Shown here one piece after another: positions 27,619 to 36,105 of a stretch of 42,163 nucleotides of DNA. A model generated the notes under the pieces. The model did not search any database and was not told the DNA's origin. It was given only the letters and a program-made list of their open reading frames with translations. The stretch is taken from contig JAJECE010000125.1 in assembly GCA_022822185.1 (NCBI GenBank), positions 1-42,163 on the forward strand, given 5' to 3'. The translations under genes and the position numbers were made by a program. Each line of letters opens with the position of its first letter. The first letter of the stretch is position 1. The DNA comes from Rhodothermales bacterium (GTDB lineage Bacteria; Bacteroidota; Rhodothermia; Rhodothermales; Bin80).

Positions 27619-27640
27619 CATCAAATTGTTATTATTGATC

Positions 27641-29425
27641 ATGCGTCTATCAAAATTTTTTGGTCAAACCCTGCGCGAAGCACCCTCGGAATCTGATTCA
27701 GCATCTAGTCAGATGCTTGTGCGGGCCGGATATGTGCGTCAACTGGCAGCTGGCCTGTACTCCTATCTCCCTTTGGCGCACCGGTCCCTGCGCAAGATTG
27801 AACAAATCCTTCGTGAGGAAATGGATGCTATCGGCGGGCAGGAGATGTGCATGCCGGTCGTCCATCCCGCCGAAATCTGGCAGGAATCCGGGCGCTGGTA
27901 TGAGATTGGGGACGAGATGGGGCGATTTCAGGATCGGAAAGGACGGGATCTGGTTCTGGCCATGACTCATGAAGAGGTGGTGACCAGTCTCTGCAAGTCA
28001 GAGGTCCGCTCCTATCGGCAATTGCCGCAGACGGTCTATCACATGCAGACAAAATTCCGGGATGAACCCCGCGCCAGAGGCGGCCTGATCCGGGTACGTG
28101 AATTTGTGATGAAGGACTCCTATACTCTGGACAGGGACTTTGATGGTCTCCAGTCTCAATACGAGGCCCACTATAATGCCTATCACCGGATTGGGGCGCG
28201 GCTCGGGCTGAACCTGGTGGCCGTGCAGAGTGATCCCGGCATGATGGGCGGCAAGGTGGCACATGAGTTCATGTATATCACGCCGGTTGGGGAAGATTCT
28301 CTGGCGATTTGTGAGGAGACCGGCTATGCATCCAATCTGGATGTGGCAACGTTCCAAAAGATTCCTGATCCTGCCGGTGTGCCAGAGCCGCTAACCCGTA
28401 TCCATACGCCCGGACAATCCACCATTGCAAAGGTGGCCGCGTTCTGCGGCGTGAGTCCCCGTCAGACGGGGAAAATGGTCTTCTATATGGGGGATTTTGG
28501 GGAGGCCGAGCCCCCTCGTCTGATCGCCGTATGTGTTCGGGGAGACATGGAAATCAACGAATTACAACTCCGCTACGCGGTCAGTGCACAGGCACTCCGC
28601 CCTGCAGAGGCGGAAGAGATTATGGCGGCGGGGTGTATCCCCGGCTACGCATCTATGTGTGATATTGACCGCACGAAGGCCCTTCTTGTTGCAGATGATC
28701 TGATTCCTGAATCCGCCAATCTGGTCGTGGGGGCGAATGAGAAGGACTGGCATTATACCGGTGCCAATTACGGGCGGGATTTTACAGCGGACATCGTCGC
28801 CCCGATTGCACTGGCCTATGACGGTGCGCCCGACCCTATTGGCGGAAAGCCGCTGCAGATCGTTCGAGGTATAGAGGTTGGAAACATTTTTCAGTTGGGA
28901 ACCCGCTACAGTGCCAGTATGGGTGCAACTTACACCGATGAGAATGGGAAGGGATTTCCCATTGTGATGGGGTCCTACGGGATTGGAGTTGGACGGGCAC
29001 TGGCCTGCGTTGCGGAGGAATACAGTGATGAATTTGGCATGGATCTGCCGATTTCCGTGGCCCCGTATCAGGTCATCTTGGTCTCTCTTGGACGAACAGG
29101 TGAGGTCCATGAGGCCGCCGAGACGCTCTACCGCCAGTTACTTGCAGCCGGGATTGAGGTACTCTATGACGACCGTGCGGTGAGCCCGGGTGTCAAGTTT
29201 GCGGATGCGGACCTTCGCGGTATCCCTTTGCGGTGCACCGTCAGTTCACGCTCTCTCAAGCGAGGAGGGGCCGAATTTGGTCGCAGGCGGAGTAAAGAAC
29301 CTGCGATCCTCCCCCTTGAGCACGCGGTTGAACAGATTCAGACCGGGATCGCCGAATGCTTCCACGAACTGAACCAGCGCCTGAAGCACCCGCCGACCTG
29401 GGCATCCCAATCCGAATCAGCCTGA
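27641..29425 (+). CDS. proS: Prolyl-tRNA synthetase, bacterial type with editing insertion
   Basis: ProRS charges tRNA-Pro in the cytosol. The ATG at 27641 (MRLSKFFGQTLREAP) is the family start; an upstream in-frame TTG would add 5 residues. The 594-residue product shows class II motifs: motif 1 near RAGYVRQLAAGLYSYLPLAHR, motif 2 (TKFRDEPRARGGLIRVREFVMKD) and motif 3 (GSYGIGVGRALACVAEE). The YbaK-like editing insertion runs from about residue 225 to 400 (ANLVVGANEKDWHY). A C-terminal anticodon-binding domain contains VLYDDR. No recognisable SD precedes it. Confidence 0.97.
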   Translation: MRLSKFFGQTLREAPSESDSASSQMLVRAGYVRQLAAGLYSYLPLAHRSLRKIEQILREEMDAIGGQEMCMPVVHPAEIWQESGRWYEIGDEMGRFQDRKGRDLVLAMTHEEVVTSLCKSEVRSYRQLPQTVYHMQTKFRDEPRARGGLIRVREFVMKDSYTLDRDFDGLQSQYEAHYNAYHRIGARLGLNLVAVQSDPGMMGGKVAHEFMYITPVGEDSLAICEETGYASNLDVATFQKIPDPAGVPEPLTRIHTPGQSTIAKVAAFCGVSPRQTGKMVFYMGDFGEAEPPRLIAVCVRGDMEINELQLRYAVSAQALRPAEAEEIMAAGCIPGYASMCDIDRTKALLVADDLIPESANLVVGANEKDWHYTGANYGRDFTADIVAPIALAYDGAPDPIGGKPLQIVRGIEVGNIFQLGTRYSASMGATYTDENGKGFPIVMGSYGIGVGRALACVAEEYSDEFGMDLPISVAPYQVILVSLGRTGEVHEAAETLYRQLLAAGIEVLYDDRAVSPGVKFADADLRGIPLRCTVSSRSLKRGGAEFGRRRSKEPAILPLEHAVEQIQTGIAECFHELNQRLKHPPTWASQSESA

Positions 29426-29636
29426 CCGCCGCAGGATTGCATTGCCCGGAATCATGTCCACACCTACACATCTTATATCACAAAAAAACGCTTCAAAAGT
29501 TAGACGAAACGTACGAAACTGTAAAGCCTCATACCGAACCCGTCCTCTGGAGCCAGGGATTTGCAGGGAACTTTGCTGAAACAAATACTTATCTTCCGTT
29601 TACAATTATCGTGTCGAACTGCATCCGATAACGACG

Positions 29637-30479
29637 ATGGCAAAAAGTTCTCATGTACTGATTGACGGGCAGCAACACGAAACTGAAGTCGGTTCAAGAA
29701 AACCTTCTTCGCTCCTTCAGCTTGCTGGCAAATCCGCAGAAGACACCTCTCTGGTTTTAGAGGACGGACAGGTGTGTGCGAACCCTGACGATCCCATTAA
29801 TGTTGTCTCAGGTCAAAAATTTACGACCAGAGAGCAAGCCCCTTCGGATACACCAGATGACAAGCCAATTTGCTACTTTGTAAACGGCGAGTCAAATTCT
29901 ACGATTGAGAATCCTCTCACCGTTCAGTCTATCCTGCAGAATGCCGGTGCAGGAGCAGCGATTGATGCCGGTGAACTGGAGAGTTACTACCTTGAAAATA
30001 CTTCAGATGGTCGGAGATACGAAAATCTTGATGACATGGTAACGATCACGGACAGGGACAATTTTCTCGCAATTCATGTCGGGAGTACACCTGTGGCCAA
30101 TTTGAACTGCGGTGATCTAATCATAGAGGAGTTGAAAAATCTTGCACTTGGTCCTAGAACTGTTCGTATTCCCGACTCAAAGTACGCTGTTACATTTGAT
30201 ATGGCCGTCAAACATGGTGCCTACAAGGGGGAGACATTACAGATTACTCTCAGCTTTCAGGAAGATGGATACCCTGAATATCCACCGCATTTTGTTCATT
30301 TTAAGTCCAACATCAAACCAGCGAAAATACCTGTTCATTCCACGTACCAGTTTGAAGGTGAGAACTGGTCGGCATACAGTCTTCCGCCCAACGACTTCTG
30401 GGATAGGCTACCATCATCGGAAAAAAACATGAAGACGTATCTCAACCGGCACCTTCTCCGTGTACTTGCCGACCTATGA
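29637..30479 (+). CDS. Fusion of two ubiquitin-like domains and an E2-like domain
   Basis: The 280-residue protein reads as three parts. Residues about 5-66 are a first beta-grasp ubiquitin-like domain of the bacterial multiubiquitin kind (HVLIDGQQHETEVG, a SLLQLAGKS helix, FTTRE). Residues about 77-149 are a second (CYFVNGESNSTIENPLTVQSILQ to LAIHVG). Residues about 160-280 are an E2/UBC-like fold with the hallmark YPEYPP (212-217), a preceding beta-meander, then DFW and a C-terminal helix pair. The E2-like part has no cysteine, the last being Cys158. There is no C-terminal diglycine. Its stop overlaps the next gene as ATGA. Tandem Ubl plus E2 recalls BilA and BilB fused. The leader (29426-29636) shows no clear promoter. 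The DNA looks more AT-rich than proS, suggesting transfer. Confidence 0.75.
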   Translation: MAKSSHVLIDGQQHETEVGSRKPSSLLQLAGKSAEDTSLVLEDGQVCANPDDPINVVSGQKFTTREQAPSDTPDDKPICYFVNGESNSTIENPLTVQSILQNAGAGAAIDAGELESYYLENTSDGRRYENLDDMVTITDRDNFLAIHVGSTPVANLNCGDLIIEELKNLALGPRTVRIPDSKYAVTFDMAVKHGAYKGETLQITLSFQEDGYPEYPPHFVHFKSNIKPAKIPVHSTYQFEGENWSAYSLPPNDFWDRLPSSEKNMKTYLNRHLLRVLADL

Positions 30480-31918
30480 GGTTTGAGGCTACCCTCACAG
30501 AGACGATTGCTGAGGAAGCAAAAAATCACTTGCTCGCACAGATTCGGCGTGGAGAACAACAGGAAGACCTCTGCTTTGCCCTCTGGCACCCGAGCACGGG
30601 TGAAACTCGAACTACAGGTATTGTAACGGAGCTAGTTCTCCCGCTTGAAGGCGAGCGCAACCTGCACGGCAATGTCAGTTTTGAATCGGATTATCTTGCG
30701 AGGGTTGTTCAAATGGCATGTCAGACAAAATCTGGTGTTGCTTTTATGCACAGCCATCCCAGTGCTGGCTGGCAGGCAATGAGCGATGTTGATATCGTTG
30801 CTGAACGGGATCGTATTGCACCTCCAGCCCGCGCTTCAGGATTACCTCTGCTGGGATTAACTGTCGGCACAGATGGCGTGTGGAGTGCGCGGTACTGGTC
30901 GTGGAATGGTCGAAAATTTGCCCGAACGTTTTGCGACAAGGTGCGAGTAGTCGGCAGTGGAATTCATCTTAGCATTCATCCAGAACATGCTCCAGCCACT
31001 CGGTCAACTCGCCAGCGCCGCACATTGGATACATGGGGGCCAGAATGTCAGGCCGCCTTGGCCAGCCTACGAATCGGTATTGTCGGTCTTGGTAGCGTCG
31101 GGGCCATCATAGCTGAAACACTTGGCCGTATCGGGGCCACTGATATTCTGCTTGTTGACGCGGACCGTGTAGAGGAAATCAACCTTGACCGATTGCTTCA
31201 CACGACCACCAAGGATATCGGCTCCTTTAAGGTTGATGTAGCAGCGAAACATCTTCGCCGATCAGCCAGTGCAGCTTCGTTTCATGTTGATCTTAGGCGT
31301 GCCTGGATCCAAGAACGTGATGCCTATGCCGCCGCACTTGATTGTGATGTCCTATTTTGTGCAGTTGACCGCCCTCTGCCCAAAGATCTGCTGAACAATA
31401 TTGCGTATGTCCACAACATTCCCGTTATCTTTGGAGGGATTCGCGTTGCAACCAAGCCTAGTGGTCGACTCAATGATGCTACCTGGAGCATCCTGCGAGT
31501 AGGACCTGACTCGCGATGCCTCCGCTGTGACGGCCAATATACCAGTTCAGATGTTGTAATGGAGCGTGATGGATCCTTGGATAATCCCTCTTACATAAAC
31601 CATAATATGGCACTATCCGGTAACCAGAACGTATTTCCTTTCGCTTCCAATTTGGCGAGTCTTATGGTGCTGGAGATGCTTCGTGCTATACTACGGGAAC
31701 CTTGGTGGCAATCCGCCCCCACAAAACTCCATTACACTTTCATGGCTAATAAGCTAACACCTCATATCAACACATGTGACCCCCAATGTTCAATTATTCA
31801 GGGAATGGGAAAGGGAGACAATTGGACTTATAGCTTTCTGGAGGATCCTGTGCATCGCAGGGATATTTCCTTCATTGATACTGTATATTCTCGAATTCGC
31901 AAGTTGATCGGCAAATAA
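30476..31918 (+). CDS. JAB/JAMM peptidase fused to an E1-like (ThiF/MoeB) adenylating enzyme
   Basis: The 480-residue protein has two domains. Residues 1-150 are JAB-like, with metal ligands His92 and His94 (MHSHP), Ser103 and Asp106 (SDVD) and a candidate catalytic Glu52. The spacing HxH-x8-S-x2-D is one residue longer than the usual x7. Residues about 185-480 are an E1/ThiF domain with the nucleotide loop GIVGLGSVG (201-209), DAD (228-230), Arg239, Lys252 and AVDR (296-299). A four-cysteine zinc site follows (Cys348 and Cys351 in RCLRC, Cys434 and Cys438 in CDPQC). I see no separate catalytic cysteine in the crossover region. JAB domains remove ubiquitin-like tags; E1 domains activate their C-termini. 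The gene is coupled to the Ubl-E2 gene by a 4-nt overlap. Confidence 0.85.
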   Translation: MRFEATLTETIAEEAKNHLLAQIRRGEQQEDLCFALWHPSTGETRTTGIVTELVLPLEGERNLHGNVSFESDYLARVVQMACQTKSGVAFMHSHPSAGWQAMSDVDIVAERDRIAPPARASGLPLLGLTVGTDGVWSARYWSWNGRKFARTFCDKVRVVGSGIHLSIHPEHAPATRSTRQRRTLDTWGPECQAALASLRIGIVGLGSVGAIIAETLGRIGATDILLVDADRVEEINLDRLLHTTTKDIGSFKVDVAAKHLRRSASAASFHVDLRRAWIQERDAYAAALDCDVLFCAVDRPLPKDLLNNIAYVHNIPVIFGGIRVATKPSGRLNDATWSILRVGPDSRCLRCDGQYTSSDVVMERDGSLDNPSYINHNMALSGNQNVFPFASNLASLMVLEMLRAILREPWWQSAPTKLHYTFMANKLTPHINTCDPQCSIIQGMGKGDNWTYSFLEDPVHRRDISFIDTVYSRIRKLIGK

Positions 31919-31920
31919 TT

Positions 31921-33192
31921 ATGGGCAGTCCTGTTACCAAAATTTCTACTACTAATGTGAGAACTTTGTCCGGCACACAACATGCTGAATTGGCAAAAAT
32001 AACCCTGCTGATCGGAGAGAACAGCGTAGGGAAATCTACGTTTGCAGGATGCTTAAACGCTATCGGACAATTTTCTCAACTCCATGAACTAAATGACCGC
32101 ACCAATTTTTTCGACCAGAAACCATTCTGCATGGGTTCATTTGAATCTATTGCCAGATCGGGCTGTGACTCATTTCGCATTGACATCAGTCTAAAGAGCG
32201 GCCTCTTTCGCCGGTTCGCTCTTGAATTTACGGAGAATCGTTCTTATTCCGCGCCCAGGCAGAGCAGGCTGGAGATGCAGATGCGTAAAAGGTCCCCAGA
32301 ATCAGATCCGGGTTTAACCATCGCCAATGAGGACTCCGAAGATCCGTCAGAGCATTGGCGATTTGATGGGCCGGAATTTCAATTTCTACTGAATCAATCC
32401 GAGGTGTCGTACACCCAGTTTACAACATGGCTTTCCCGATATGTCACCCACGGCCATCTTCCCTTCTCGGGTTCTCCGACAGTATTCAGGAAACGCATGG
32501 GGAACCCGGCAAATCAGGAAGAGCCGAACTTCATCAAGTTTATCAACTTCCTTAAGAAACATTTCCAGGGCCCACCGCCATCCTTTCGAATTATCCCTGT
32601 CATTCCCCATGGATTGGACCGAAAGCGTTACTATCCCCATAATCCCATCAAAGCCTTAGACAACGATGTAGACCTTAGTGCAATTAACCGTGTCGGTCAG
32701 AAGCTCGGCCTTTTCAGGCAACTTGATGTTCGGAAACTTTCCACAGGCCAATTTGAAGTTCGGGTAAATGTTTCCGGTTCCTATTACAATTTAATTGATG
32801 TTGGATATGGAATCCCAAGCCTTCTCCCTTTCATTATCGCTTTTTGTGACGCTCCTTCGGGATCACTTTTCCTGTTGCAACAGCCCGAGGTACATGTCCA
32901 TCCATCTGCTCAGGCGGAACTCATTAAAATGATGGTTGAAAGCGATCATGCCTTTGTCATAGAGACACACAGCGACCACATAATTACTTGGTTCCGCATA
33001 TTAGTTAAAGAAAAATTTCTAAGGCATTCTGATGTTGCACTAATTTATTTTGAACATCCTCCAGAGGATAAATCGTCAACACGCTTACATCAGATTTCGC
33101 TTGACAACCGCGCCAACCTCATTGGACAGCCTCCACGCTATCAGCGGTTCATCCTGGAAGAGACGAACAGGCTACTGGGATTTTCAACATGA
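31921..33192 (+). CDS. RecF/OLD-like AAA ATPase with altered Walker B
   Basis: The 423-residue protein has Walker A GENSVGKST (32-40) after a short beta strand and a long middle region (about 60-290) of mixed helices with basic patches. An ABC-signature-like DVGYGIPSLLP (293-303), a Walker B region LFLLQQPEVHVHP (316-328) and an H-loop IETHSDHII (347-355) follow. In relatives the Walker B ends EQPE or DEPE; here both acidic positions are glutamine, leaving only Glu323. There is no TOPRIM or HNH domain, unlike OLD or Septu variants. It starts 2 nt after the E1 stop and ends 10 nt before the PIN gene. In antiphage systems such ATPases sense the trigger and hold or activate a nuclease. Confidence 0.85.
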   Translation: MGSPVTKISTTNVRTLSGTQHAELAKITLLIGENSVGKSTFAGCLNAIGQFSQLHELNDRTNFFDQKPFCMGSFESIARSGCDSFRIDISLKSGLFRRFALEFTENRSYSAPRQSRLEMQMRKRSPESDPGLTIANEDSEDPSEHWRFDGPEFQFLLNQSEVSYTQFTTWLSRYVTHGHLPFSGSPTVFRKRMGNPANQEEPNFIKFINFLKKHFQGPPPSFRIIPVIPHGLDRKRYYPHNPIKALDNDVDLSAINRVGQKLGLFRQLDVRKLSTGQFEVRVNVSGSYYNLIDVGYGIPSLLPFIIAFCDAPSGSLFLLQQPEVHVHPSAQAELIKMMVESDHAFVIETHSDHIITWFRILVKEKFLRHSDVALIYFEHPPEDKSSTRLHQISLDNRANLIGQPPRYQRFILEETNRLLGFST

Positions 33193-33202
33193 GACCCTCA
33201 AT

Positions 33203-33703
33203 ATGTGTGTGAGAGCTATTCTGGATGCCAGTGCATTTCGCCATTTCTCTGCCGAAACCAGAAATTCGGCCGGCTATCAATTTCGAAAATGGCTCAACCG
33301 AGAAGATGGGATAATCGTCTATACTAACTATGCGAAGTACAAGAAAGAAGTGAGCGTAAACAACGAGATTCGTGGTCTTCTGCAAGCTTATCTTAAAATT
33401 GGGAAAGCTATTGATATTGCTTTAGCCGATCTTCAACCTGCCCTGGACGGTATCCCCGATCCTCCAATCCGTCGTTCGGATGATCCTCATATCTTGGCAC
33501 TGGCAGTAGCTGGCAAGGCTACGGTTCTTTTTTCATGCGACAAAGAACTTTGTAAAGATTTTGCCGACCCCAAGGTAATTCCTAGAACAGGGCGACAGCG
33601 TCGTAAATCTCTCCCCAGTATTGATGAGCACTCTCCAGAGGAAACAACCGGATCGAAAGAGAGAAAAAAGTTTCTGAACTCACGTAGATGCACTTCCTGC
33701 TGA
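33203..33703 (+). CDS. PIN-domain nuclease-like protein
   Basis: The start is the ATG at 33203 (MCVRAILDASAFRHF), 10 nt after the ATPase stop; a longer in-frame extension back to 33050 would overlap the ATPase by over 140 nt. The 166-residue product carries the four acidic positions of a PIN fold: Asp8 (LDAS), Glu49 (KYKKEV), Asp93 or Asp94 (SDDPHILALA) and Asp113 (SCDKEL). The helix-strand pattern between them fits. PIN domains are Mg/Mn-dependent RNases, most often toxins. The 30-residue basic tail (RTGRQRRK ... RKKFLNSRRCTSC) could bind nucleic acid. No antitoxin-like gene adjoins; the ATPase and Ubl module may serve that role (inference). Confidence 0.72.
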   Translation: MCVRAILDASAFRHFSAETRNSAGYQFRKWLNREDGIIVYTNYAKYKKEVSVNNEIRGLLQAYLKIGKAIDIALADLQPALDGIPDPPIRRSDDPHILALAVAGKATVLFSCDKELCKDFADPKVIPRTGRQRRKSLPSIDEHSPEETTGSKERKKFLNSRRCTSC

Positions 33704-34016
33704 CACCTCAATTGGATTGTGCCTCCTCACTGGCCTGGAAGTGTCGCAAGTAAACCGTATGCTCCAGTTGTGGTATGTGATTCCCCATAGAACATCTCCG
33801 ATACACATCGTAGCAGTTAAGGTTATCCTATCTGGAAGAGGAGACTATTGTGGAGTGAATTGATGAAACTGCTATGTTAGGGTTTTGGTAAAGCGTAGAT
33901 TTTGTGGAAGTTACCTGCTGTTCGCTTTATCCACAGGCTGTTAGACAGGATGTTGCACACTATACTTGACTTAGTTGTCGCTAGACATGTGCAATCTCTA
34001 TCCATTAAACCGTAAA
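33704..34016. other. Gene-free stretch between the PIN gene and thrS
   Basis: This is a 313-bp AT-leaning gap between convergent genes. I see no ORF of note, no tRNA and no strong hairpin with a T-tract. It marks the right boundary of the ubiquitin-like operon. Confidence 0.5.
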
Positions 34017-35828
34017 TCAGTCAAGATCACCGCTCATGTCGGGGCTGCACTCCCCGTGAATTAGGTCCAGAAAAGCCTCCAGTGTCATTCCACCAAGGTT
34101 CTTATTGGAGCGGGCACGCACCGAAATCACATCCTGCTCCGCCTCACGAGTGCCAAGGACCACCATGTAAGGCACCTTGAATATCTCCGCCTCCCGAATT
34201 TTGTATCCGATTTTTTCACCTCGGACATCCAGCGTCGTTCGCAGCCCCTCGGACTTAAGCCTGCTATGGACTTCTTTGGCATAGTCCTCCGTGCGGTCAG
34301 AGATAGACAGTACACGAACTTGCTCAGGGGCCAGCCACATCGGGAACGCCCCTGCACAATGCTCAATCAAGACCCCAATAAAGCGCTCCAGTGATCCAAA
34401 AATTGCCCGATGTATCATCGCTGGCCGGTGGCGCTCATCATCTGTTCCTGTGTACCAGAGATCGAAGCGCTCCGGCAGGTTATAATCCAGCTGAACCGTC
34501 CCCAACTGCCACTGCCGACCAAGTGCATCGTGAACCATAAAATCAATCTTCGGCCCATAAAATGCCGCTTCACCTAACTCCTCGTGTACTTCAAAATTCA
34601 TTCCATGCACAACTTTACGCATGGCATCCTCCGCCTCATTCCAGTTGTCTTCTGAACCGGTATATTTCTCATGGTCATCAGGATCACGCAGGGACAACTG
34701 TACACTAAATTCTTTAAAATCCAATGCACGCAGAACACGAATAGCAAGATCCACCGAATCCTGGATCTCTTCTTCCACCTGGTCATGCCTGCAAAAAATA
34801 TGTGCATCATCAACCGTAAAACCGCGGACACGGGTCAAACCGCCGAGTTCTCCCGTCTGCTCATATCGATATACCTGTCCGAATTCCGCCAGACGCACCG
34901 GCAACTCCCGATAACTGCGCCGCTTATGTGCATATACGAGAATATGATGCGGACAATTCATGGGCTTGAGCAGATAGCCATCCATCCCGTGTGAACTCAT
35001 CGGCGGAAATTGGTTTTCGCTATAATAGGGATAGTGTCCACTCGTCCGATAAAGATCAAGATGGCCGATATGCGGGGTAAGGACCGGCTCATAACCGCGC
35101 CGAGTCTGCTCTTCGCGTAGAAAATTTACCAATGTCTCACGAAGGGTGGCCCCTGCCGGAAGCCAGAGCGGAAGTCCTGGTCCAACTTCTTCGCTCAACA
35201 TGAACAGTTCCAATTTTTTTCCTAATACCCGGTGATCTCTGGCACGAGCCTGCTCCAGGCGCTCCAGGTATGCATCCAATTGCGTCCGGTTCTTCCATGC
35301 CGTCCCATAGATCCGTGTGAGTTGCACACGCTCAGCATCCCCGCGCCAATAGGCACCTGCAACGGATAGAAGCTTAATACCATTCGACTTGAGGTATCCC
35401 GTATGAGGAATGTGAGGCCCCCGGCAGAGATCAACGAAAGAATCCTGCTGGTAGACGGTCAGCCGCGTATCCCCATTCTTGGCGGCCAGTTCCTCAATCA
35501 ATTCCACCTTATAGGGGTTATCCTCAAAGAGTTTGTAGGCCTCCTCCAACGTTACCTCACGGATCTCAAAACGATGACGCCCCTTGATGATTGCCCGCAT
35601 CCGTTCCTCAATCCAGACCAGATCTTCTTCGTGCGGCGGACGCGCCATCTCGAAGTCGTAATAGAACCGATCTTCAATCGGCGGCCCAATGGTCGGCTTT
35701 GCATCAGGAAAACGCTCCACAACGGCCTGTGCCATAATGTGTGCGGCCGAATGGCGTATTTTATAGAGAGCCGGATCGTACCCTTCCGGAATGTACGTTT
35801 CAGCTTGCTCCAGGAGTTCTTCAATCAT
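34017..35828 (-). CDS. thrS: Threonyl-tRNA synthetase lacking the TGS domain
   Basis: ThrRS charges tRNA-Thr. The ATG at 35828 gives 603 residues; 43 further upstream codons in frame show no family character and lie in the shared duplicated leader. The protein begins directly with a short linker and the editing domain (KIRHSAAHIMAQAV, His26 and His30 by this numbering, and later CRGPHIPHTG). It continues with the class II core: MNCPHH for the zinc cysteine, motif 2 around VYRYEQTGELGGLTRVRGFTVDDAH, motif 3 IHRAIFGSLERFIG. The anticodon-binding domain ends the protein. Compared with the ~640-residue E. coli enzyme the N-terminal TGS domain is absent. It is divergent from a broken alkD copy. 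Confidence 0.95.
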   Translation of the reverse strand: MIEELLEQAETYIPEGYDPALYKIRHSAAHIMAQAVVERFPDAKPTIGPPIEDRFYYDFEMARPPHEEDLVWIEERMRAIIKGRHRFEIREVTLEEAYKLFEDNPYKVELIEELAAKNGDTRLTVYQQDSFVDLCRGPHIPHTGYLKSNGIKLLSVAGAYWRGDAERVQLTRIYGTAWKNRTQLDAYLERLEQARARDHRVLGKKLELFMLSEEVGPGLPLWLPAGATLRETLVNFLREEQTRRGYEPVLTPHIGHLDLYRTSGHYPYYSENQFPPMSSHGMDGYLLKPMNCPHHILVYAHKRRSYRELPVRLAEFGQVYRYEQTGELGGLTRVRGFTVDDAHIFCRHDQVEEEIQDSVDLAIRVLRALDFKEFSVQLSLRDPDDHEKYTGSEDNWNEAEDAMRKVVHGMNFEVHEELGEAAFYGPKIDFMVHDALGRQWQLGTVQLDYNLPERFDLWYTGTDDERHRPAMIHRAIFGSLERFIGVLIEHCAGAFPMWLAPEQVRVLSISDRTEDYAKEVHSRLKSEGLRTTLDVRGEKIGYKIREAEIFKVPYMVVLGTREAEQDVISVRARSNKNLGGMTLEAFLDLIHGECSPDMSGDLD

Positions 35829-36105
35829 GCGTGAACATAAATTATTACTGACCAACAGAGGGACACGCGTTCGAGGGCAAGGTGTTCCCGCGAGATGACT
35901 GCCAGAGACATTCAAACCCTGATGGAGGGCCACAGAGATCCCGTTCGGGCTGCACACAGTCTGGCTTTTTCAAAACCGTCCAAGCGAATACGGAGAGGGA
36001 GACATTTTTCCTGGTACTACATTACCTGAACTTCGCAAAATTGCGCAATGCCGGAAAGATGCCCCACTTAAGGAAATGACACTCTTATTACGACTCCATT
36101 TCCCT
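35687..36105. repeat. Direct repeat copy 1: thrS 5' end, intergenic leader and alkD 5' end
   Basis: From CAATGGTCGG at 35687 the sequence aligns with 39608 onward at an offset of 3921-3924 bp, with scattered substitutions and small indels. The best-conserved part is the leader between the two start codons (GCGTGAACATAAATTATTACTGACCAA region). Homology stops near 36105. In this copy thrS is intact and alkD is frameshifted. Confidence 0.88.
35895..36105 (+). pseudogene. Broken 5' fragment of an AlkD-like DNA glycosylase gene
   Basis: The ATG at 35895 begins TARDIQTLME and continues in register with the intact gene at 39819 for about 21 codons. A one-base loss near GCACACAG and a second near ACCGTCCA shift the frame. 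Segments FFKT, LPELRKIA-like and KEMTLLL remain recognisable in rotating frames. After about 36105 the match ends, and the frame runs through unrelated sequence to a TGA at 36250. The HEAT-like catalytic region is missing. Confidence 0.82.

What the first reader, a model, noticed from the sequence alone, without database searches (positions are those of the whole stretch)
29637..33703. Four-gene operon joining a condensed ubiquitin-like module to an ATPase and a PIN nuclease
The sequence shows a Ubl-Ubl-E2-like fusion, a JAB-E1 fusion, an AAA ATPase and a PIN protein with gaps of -4, +2 and +10 nt. Bacterial Bil systems encode a tandem Ubl, E2, E1 and JAB as separate proteins, and CBASS type II has Cap2 (E2-E1) and Cap3 (JAB). 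Here the same four activities are packed into two genes and linked to an ATPase plus nuclease pair like those of Septu, PARIS or Gabija. An inferred model is that the tag cycle controls the nuclease in phage defence. I do not know of a described system with exactly this four-gene set.
Basis: partly seen in the sequence, partly recalled or inferred. Interest (0 to 1): 0.93.

Follow-up and report, generated by a model that had tools for sequence, protein, structure and literature searches.

The report
Ubiquitin-like cassette carrying an ATPase-nuclease effector
A small mobile bacterial operon joins a known, poorly understood ubiquitin-like tagging pathway (called Bub, or type 6e) to an ATPase and a PIN-type RNA-cutting enzyme, which offers a concrete way to test what that tagging pathway is for.

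Summary
Four tightly packed genes (gaps -4, +2, +10) encode Ubl-Ubl-E2-like, JAB-E1, ABC-type ATPase and PIN proteins, all under purifying selection. They form a discrete low-GC insertion between ProRS and ThrRS, which lie only about 0.1 kb apart in two related species.

The first two genes are not a new condensation but a divergent member of the type 6e operons described in 2006, now called Bub: JAB-E1 matches Citrobacter BubCD (profile E=1e-91), the Ubl pair matches solved bacterial multi-ubiquitin proteins, and the E2-like domain matches BubB by structure. It has no conserved cysteine, so is probably not a classical E2.

The unusual part is the effector. Every member found of the E1 clade (five Rhodothermales, one split across contigs; one Latescibacterota) has ATPase+PIN after the core. 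Sister clades carry a DUF2971-like gene or none. ATPase-PIN pairs also occur without Ubl genes. Standalone Ubls of this branch mostly end in Val-Ala, not Gly-Gly.

Best model: a defence-type operon in which a Ubl cycle controls an ATPase-restrained PIN RNase, as AriA restrains AriB in PARIS. Coupling and its direction are inferred. New variant of a known kind.

The parts
29637..30479 (+). Gene U: Ubl-Ubl-E2-like fusion (280 aa), BubA-BubB-like
   Evidence: ORF; model; fold matches 8u38/9cd2/9d5a (multi-ubiquitin) and 9eae_C (BubB); orthologues
29649..29834 (+). first beta-grasp (Ubl) domain, about residues 5-66
   Evidence: secondary structure of the model
29862..30080 (+). second beta-grasp (Ubl) domain, about residues 76-148
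   Evidence: alignment
30087..30098 (+). TPVA motif (residues 151-154): equals the free C-terminus of the Ubl in relatives where Ubl and E2 are separate genes; predicted JAB processing site between A154 and N155
   Evidence: lowest-confidence (flexible) stretch of the model 151-155
30108..30476 (+). E2/RWD-like (BubB-like) domain without a conserved Cys; PPHxxH motif
30476..31918 (+). Gene E: JAB-E1 fusion (480 aa), BubCD-like; JAMM E30/H92/H94/S103/D106; E1 D228/R239/K252/D298; CxxC zinc-type pair at 348/351
31921..33192 (+). Gene A: ABC/AAA_15-type ATPase (423 aa); Walker A GENSVGKS at 32014-32037, glutamate E323, H350
33203..33703 (+). Gene P: PIN-domain nuclease (166 aa); acidic quartet D8/E49/D94/D113; C-terminal tail ending RRCTSC
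29426..34016 (.). inserted cassette between convergent ProRS (27626-29425) and ThrRS (34017-35957); GC falls to about 45-49% in most of it (52.6% at its highest, inside the JAB-E1 gene) against 51-57% in most of the flanks

Best explanation
This is a mobile, defence-type operon: a divergent Bub (type 6e) ubiquitin-like conjugation core with a dedicated ATPase-PIN effector. Proposed sequence of events: the JAB domain cuts the fused precursor after ...GSTPVA to free the Ubl-Ubl tag; the E1 domain adenylates the Val-Ala end; the BubB-like domain acts as the non-cysteine partner that helps pass the tag to a target. The ATPase holds the PIN ribonuclease inactive, as AriA holds AriB in PARIS, and Ubl attachment or removal on that complex (or on an infection-exposed target that it senses) switches the PIN enzyme on, so that RNA is cut and growth stops. 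Shown: gene content, folds, conserved active-site residues, purifying selection, shared clade-wide gene order, discrete insertion. Inferred: JAB processing site, conjugation itself, ATPase-PIN inhibition, the link between the two halves and its direction, and the role in phage defence.
For: Core identity: BubCD match at profile E=1e-91 over 448 positions, multi-ubiquitin and BubB structural matches, type 6e definition. JAMM and adenylation residues invariant or nearly so in 24 proteins. PIN acidic quartet invariant in 13 and VapC-like fold. Walker A and ABC-type residues invariant in 12 ATPases. ATPase+PIN follow the core directly in window, G003, G009, G014 and in L025, a Latescibacterota genome, and sit at a contig break in G002. 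These E1s form a clade with 100/99 support; the ATPases of the window, G003, G009, G014 and L025 fall in one clade that also holds one Ubl-free pair. Tight spacing kept in G009, whose ATPase and E1 are 62% and 77% identical. All four genes under purifying selection. Free Ubls end in TPVA or another -VA, the last two residues being invariant in 11 rows. A second Bub subtype in the same order carries an AAA/OLD-type ATPase gene, which suggests that pairing Bub with such ATPases recurs. ATPase-PIN pairs also sit beside AbiEii or inside DUF1156/DUF499 operons, defence-type surroundings. PARIS mechanism from PMC11455837.
Against: No experiment and no predicted complex links the Ubl proteins to the ATPase or PIN. 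Sister clades of the core lack ATPase-PIN and ATPase-PIN occurs without the core, so each half can work alone. The E2-like domain lacks a conserved Cys and the E1 has no invariant Cys, so a classical cascade is doubtful. In the fused gene the Ubl end is not free. Bub operons have not been shown to protect against phage (PMC13373217). The full set is rare: 5 of 114 genomes of the order plus one other phylum.
Confidence: 0.45

Rival explanations
1. Two independent defence modules travel together. The Bub-like core and the ATPase-PIN pair each work on their own and share only a promoter and a mobile cassette.
For: ATPase-PIN pairs stand alone or in other contexts; actinobacterial plasmids carry Ubl-E2-JAB/E1 without any obvious effector; defence genes are commonly co-located.
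Against: The order U-E-A-P with gaps or overlaps of a few bases is kept over two phyla and about 55% E1 identity, the E1s form one well-supported clade and the ATPase tree is compatible with it, and the insertion holds these four genes only.
Confidence: 0.3
2. The fused Ubl-Ubl-E2 protein is never cut or conjugated. The tandem Ubls act as a structural or filament-forming scaffold that holds E1, ATPase and PIN together.
For: No Gly-Gly end and no conserved Cys in E1 or E2; fused form kept in window, G003 and G002; solved bacterial multi-ubiquitin filaments are among the best structural matches.
Against: In G009 and Latescibacterota the Ubl pair is a separate protein ending exactly at TPVA, the -VA end is invariant, and JAMM and adenylation residues are intact, so processing and activation appear to be kept.
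Confidence: 0.15
3. The PIN protein is the effector of a stress-response rather than an antiphage system.
For: Bub operons are often controlled by DNA-damage regulators and no antiphage effect is reported (PMC13373217).
Against: No regulator gene lies in this cassette; mobile, low-GC, sporadic distribution and a site region shared with another Bub-type operon fit defence cargo.
Confidence: 0.1

Closest known systems
Type 6e operons (Iyer et al. 2006, PMC1779556) = Bub pathways (Citrobacter BubB, BubCD structures 9ea4, 9eae, 9eav)
   Same: polyUbl, inactive E2/RWD-like domain (fused to the Ubls in some members), JAB fused to the N-terminus of E1; same folds and active-site residues
   Different: No DUF6527 / metal-binding gene here; ATPase+PIN instead; E1 has a CxxC zinc-type pair absent from the five classical Bub E1s aligned here; Ubl ends in -TPVA; Ubl and E2 too divergent for Pfam
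PARIS (AriA ABC ATPase + AriB TOPRIM nuclease)
   Same: ABC-type ATPase gene next to a small nuclease gene; distant ATPase similarity (AriA models; AriA among PDB profile hits)
   Different: Nuclease is PIN, not TOPRIM; a Ubl core is attached; mechanism not shown
NsnB of Menshen, PDC-M55A, HEC-03B (PADLOC ATPase models)
   Same: Best PADLOC matches of the ATPase, 6.5e-35, 6e-20, 1.3e-18
   Different: None of the PIN proteins scanned matches a PADLOC family at the cut-offs used
Bil and CBASS type II (BilD, Cap2, Cap3)
   Same: E1/JAB/Ubl logic, distant E1 similarity
   Different: Different domain order and E2; among solved proteins BubCD is far closer than Cap2, and the BilD model scores only 2.8e-7
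VapC toxins
   Same: PIN fold and acidic quartet
   Different: Partner gene is an ATPase, not a VapB antitoxin; C-terminal extension

Membership tests
Type 6e / Bub | JAB fused N-terminal to an E1-like domain, active residues kept | tested here: met
   BubCD E=1e-91 with profile, JAMM and E1 residues conserved
Type 6e / Bub | protein with one to three Ubl domains next to the E1 gene | tested here: met
   two beta-grasp domains, matches 8u38/9cd2/9d5a
Type 6e / Bub | E2/RWD-like domain lacking the catalytic Cys, fused to the Ubls or separate | tested here: met
   structure match to BubB 9eae_C, Z 9.3, rmsd 3.4 over 115 residues; no conserved Cys. Sequence profile against classical E2_E was weak (probability 10.7%)
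Type 6e / Bub | metal-binding / DUF6527 gene in the operon (common, not stated as universal) | tested here: not met
   absent from the cassette; present in L020 of the same order. The 2006 text says operons usually, not always, hold the extra genes, so this is treated as a variant feature
Type 6e / Bub | conjugation chemistry of Bub | not testable with these tools
   needs biochemistry; the primary Bub papers are not held
PARIS | TOPRIM/DUF4435 nuclease AriB | tested here: not met
   the nuclease is PIN
Bil | four separate genes BilA-D with Cys E2 | tested here: not met
   fused genes, no conserved E2 Cys, BilD only 2.8e-7
CBASS type II | CD-NTase and E2-E1 Cap2 | tested here: not met
   none of the four genes gives a CD-NTase hit and the E1 carries JAB, not E2
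VapBC toxin-antitoxin | PIN toxin with intact acidic residues | tested here: met
VapBC toxin-antitoxin | adjacent VapB-type antitoxin | tested here: not met
   the adjacent gene is an ABC-type ATPase

The most novel reading that the evidence does not exclude
A ubiquitin-like tag cycle, using a Val-Ala-ended tandem Ubl matured by its own JAB-E1 enzyme and no E2 cysteine, acts as the on/off switch of an ATPase-restrained PIN ribonuclease: a toxin controlled by ubiquitin-like modification in bacteria.
Probability: 0.28. Interest if true: 0.87.

Novelty: new variant of a known kind. Interest (0 to 1): 0.6.

Why it matters
Bub operons occur in hundreds of bacteria but no protection against phage has been shown for them (PMC13373217). 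Here the core comes with an effector whose activity (RNA cleavage, growth arrest) can be measured, so the role of the pathway becomes testable. It also suggests that Ubl cores exchange effectors (ATPase-PIN, DUF2971-like, and possibly the AAA/OLD-type ATPase of other Bub operons) much as CBASS does, and that a Ubl can end in Val-Ala instead of Gly-Gly.

Tried and rejected
Chance or non-coding ORFs: rejected (orthologues and dN/dS). A brand-new Ubl condensation: rejected (type 6e). Membership in Bil, CBASS or PARIS: rejected by defining features. A viral origin: no E1 relative in viral contigs or phage records at the sensitivity used. A frameshift as the reason for separate Ubl and E2 in G009: rejected, two in-frame stops and a new ATG lie between them, and L025 has the same split with an ATGA overlap. 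The conserved PIN tail Cys as a Ubl acceptor specific to this operon: not supported, that Cys is nearly invariant also in Ubl-free ATPase-PIN pairs. phmmer of gene U against the PDB gave no relevant hit; the profile gave only weak E2 hits (E 0.3-0.9); hhalign of E2 profiles was inconclusive. Plasmid searches found no full-length relative of the ATPase. The Bub primary papers could not be read. No complex prediction is offered here.

Full report
OBSERVATION. The four ORFs are present exactly as described: U 29637-30479, E 30476-31918, A 31921-33192, P 33203-33703, with gaps -4, +2 and +10. Orthologues of all four lie in the same order in G003, G009 and G014 (in G014 the U and P genes are damaged, see below) and in L025, a Latescibacterota genome in which Ubl and E2 are separate genes. 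In G002 the U and E genes run off one contig end and the ATPase tail and PIN begin at another contig end, which fits one operon split by the assembly but is not proof. dN/dS between window and G003 is 0.31 (U), 0.09 (E), 0.41 (A), 0.34 (P); against G009 (E, A, P) and G002 (U) it is 0.10-0.26, with saturated dS in most of those pairs.

GENE U. No library family matches, but a model from 18 aligned rows reaches mean pLDDT 88.7 with two beta-grasp domains, a flexible joint and an E2-like domain. Foldseek ranks bacterial multi-ubiquitin domain proteins first (8u38, E 4e-6; 9cd2, 6e-6). VIA-align matches residues 157-280 to Citrobacter BubB (9eae_C, Z 9.3, rmsd 3.4 over 115 residues); the residue numbers of that chain (239-359) suggest that BubB, too, is the C-terminal part of a longer polypeptide (inference). 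In classical Bub operons of the same order the fusion is plain at sequence level: Multi_ubiq plus Prok-E2_E, and BubB 1e-18. No Cys is conserved in the E2-like domain; nine positions, among them those of the PPHxxH motif, W87, S91 and W98, are invariant in 15 rows.

UBL END. In loci of this branch where the Ubl is its own gene it ends ...TPVA (L010, L025, L027, L028, L029, L031), APVA, QVA, DVA or GGVA (actinobacterial plasmids), or TPVS (L033). In an alignment of 11 such domains the only invariant residues are one Ala and the terminal Val-Ala. L032, a more distant member, ends in LAG. In the fused window gene TPVA is kept and followed by a variable joint (NLNCGDL; DSGSHTV in G002), which is also the least confident stretch of the model. 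Inference: TPVA is the working end and JAB frees it.

GENE E. ThiF 7.3e-30 and a sub-threshold Prok-JAB. Best solved relative BubCD (7.3e-20 single sequence; 1e-91 with a 24-row profile). E30, H92, H94, D106 invariant and S103 nearly so; E1 D228, R239, K252, D298 invariant; no invariant Cys.

GENES A AND P. A is an ABC-type ATPase nearest to PADLOC NsnB and, among solved proteins, to OLD, PtuA, AriA and GajA. P has a PIN model (pLDDT 85) that matches VapC toxins (6a7v, probability 1.00, E 3.9e-3; VapC21 Z 9.1) with D8, E49, D94 and D113 invariant in 13 homologues. Pairs of the same two families occur without Ubl genes: next to AbiEii in G006, twice in tandem inside a DUF1156/DUF499 operon in the window's own genome (G000:C102), in similar operons in G006 and G002, and in two more distant species of the phylum.

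DISTRIBUTION. A scan of about 85,000 species genomes with two peptide patterns gave 12 loci of the E1 family; the patterns are strict, so this is a lower bound. Within the order 5 of 114 genomes have the window's clade. The tree of E1-JAB joins window, G003, G009, G014, G002 and L025 at 100/99; all of these have ATPase-PIN (G002 across contigs). The ATPase tree places the window, G003, G009, G014 and L025 together with one Ubl-free pair (G006) at 100/99; L025 and the G006 pair are not resolved against each other. The sister branch (Nitrospirales, two Dehalococcoidia, a gammaproteobacterium) has Ubl, E2, JAB-E1 and a convergent gene with weak DUF2971 similarity (4 of 4 members, best E 0.0024). 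Actinobacterial plasmids have Ubl, E2 and JAB-E1, in most cases with regulator-like or toxin-antitoxin genes nearby and no dedicated effector recognised. A classical Bub subtype in the same order carries an AAA/OLD-type ATPase gene next to the core, with DUF6527 confirmed in L020.

MOBILITY. The cassette lies between convergent ProRS and ThrRS genes, with GC about 45-49% in most of it against 51-57% in most of the flanks. In G002 and G009 these two genes are about 0.1 kb apart, while the same two genomes carry the cassette elsewhere; in G009 it sits among ParA- and secretion-ATPase-like genes. In G014 the region beside ThrRS and ProRS holds a JAB-E1, a DUF6527-like and an AAA/OLD-type gene instead. 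The G014 copy of the window's cassette is broken: the Ubl part is missing and the PIN gene is interrupted by an element with a serine recombinase.

MECHANISM. Shown: composition, folds, conserved catalytic residues, selection, shared history, discrete insertion. Inferred from PARIS (PMC11455837): the ATPase keeps the nuclease off. Inferred from gene order and the JAB/E1 residues: Ubl maturation and attachment act on this pair or on its trigger. I hold about 0.45 for functional coupling with the Ubl cycle as regulator, 0.3 for independent modules, 0.15 for a non-conjugating scaffold, and 0.1 for a stress rather than antiphage role (these overlap in part).

NOVELTY. The core is already described (type 6e, 2006; Bub, cited in PMC13373217 as Gong 2025 and Ye 2026, whose texts are not held here). 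The ATPase-PIN effector slot and the Val-Ala end were not found described in the papers I could search, which is weak evidence. I therefore rate it a new variant of a known kind.

Noticed in passing
L027:8436-9485, L028:8436-9422, L029:8436-9425, L031:8445-9380 (all - strand): A convergent 311-349 aa gene with weak DUF2971 similarity follows the sister-clade Ubl-E2-JAB/E1 operons; a possible alternative effector.
   Followed up: partly
L019:6921-11317, L020:6800-11249, L021:7405-11015: Classical Bub operons in Rhodothermales with an AAA/OLD-type ATPase gene next to the core (DUF6527 confirmed in L020, similar gene in L021); the one in G014 (L021) sits near the ThrRS/ProRS genes that flank the window's cassette.
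   Followed up: partly
L053:2009-12890 (G000:C102): Two tandem ATPase-PIN pairs between a DUF1156 methylase-like gene and a DUF499 gene in the window's own genome; similar layouts in L052 and L054.
   Followed up: partly
L011:11507-15304 (G014): The PIN gene is interrupted by an element with a serine recombinase, and the Ubl half of gene U is missing: effector and tag are both damaged while E1 and ATPase remain open.
   Followed up: partly
L010:9052-9903 (G009): Ubl-Ubl and E2 are separated by two in-frame stops and a new ATG, giving a free ...STPVA end.
   Followed up: yes
L033:8598-9707: A gene with a weak DUF4238 match follows a distant Bacteroidia relative of the core; another possible effector.
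   Followed up: no
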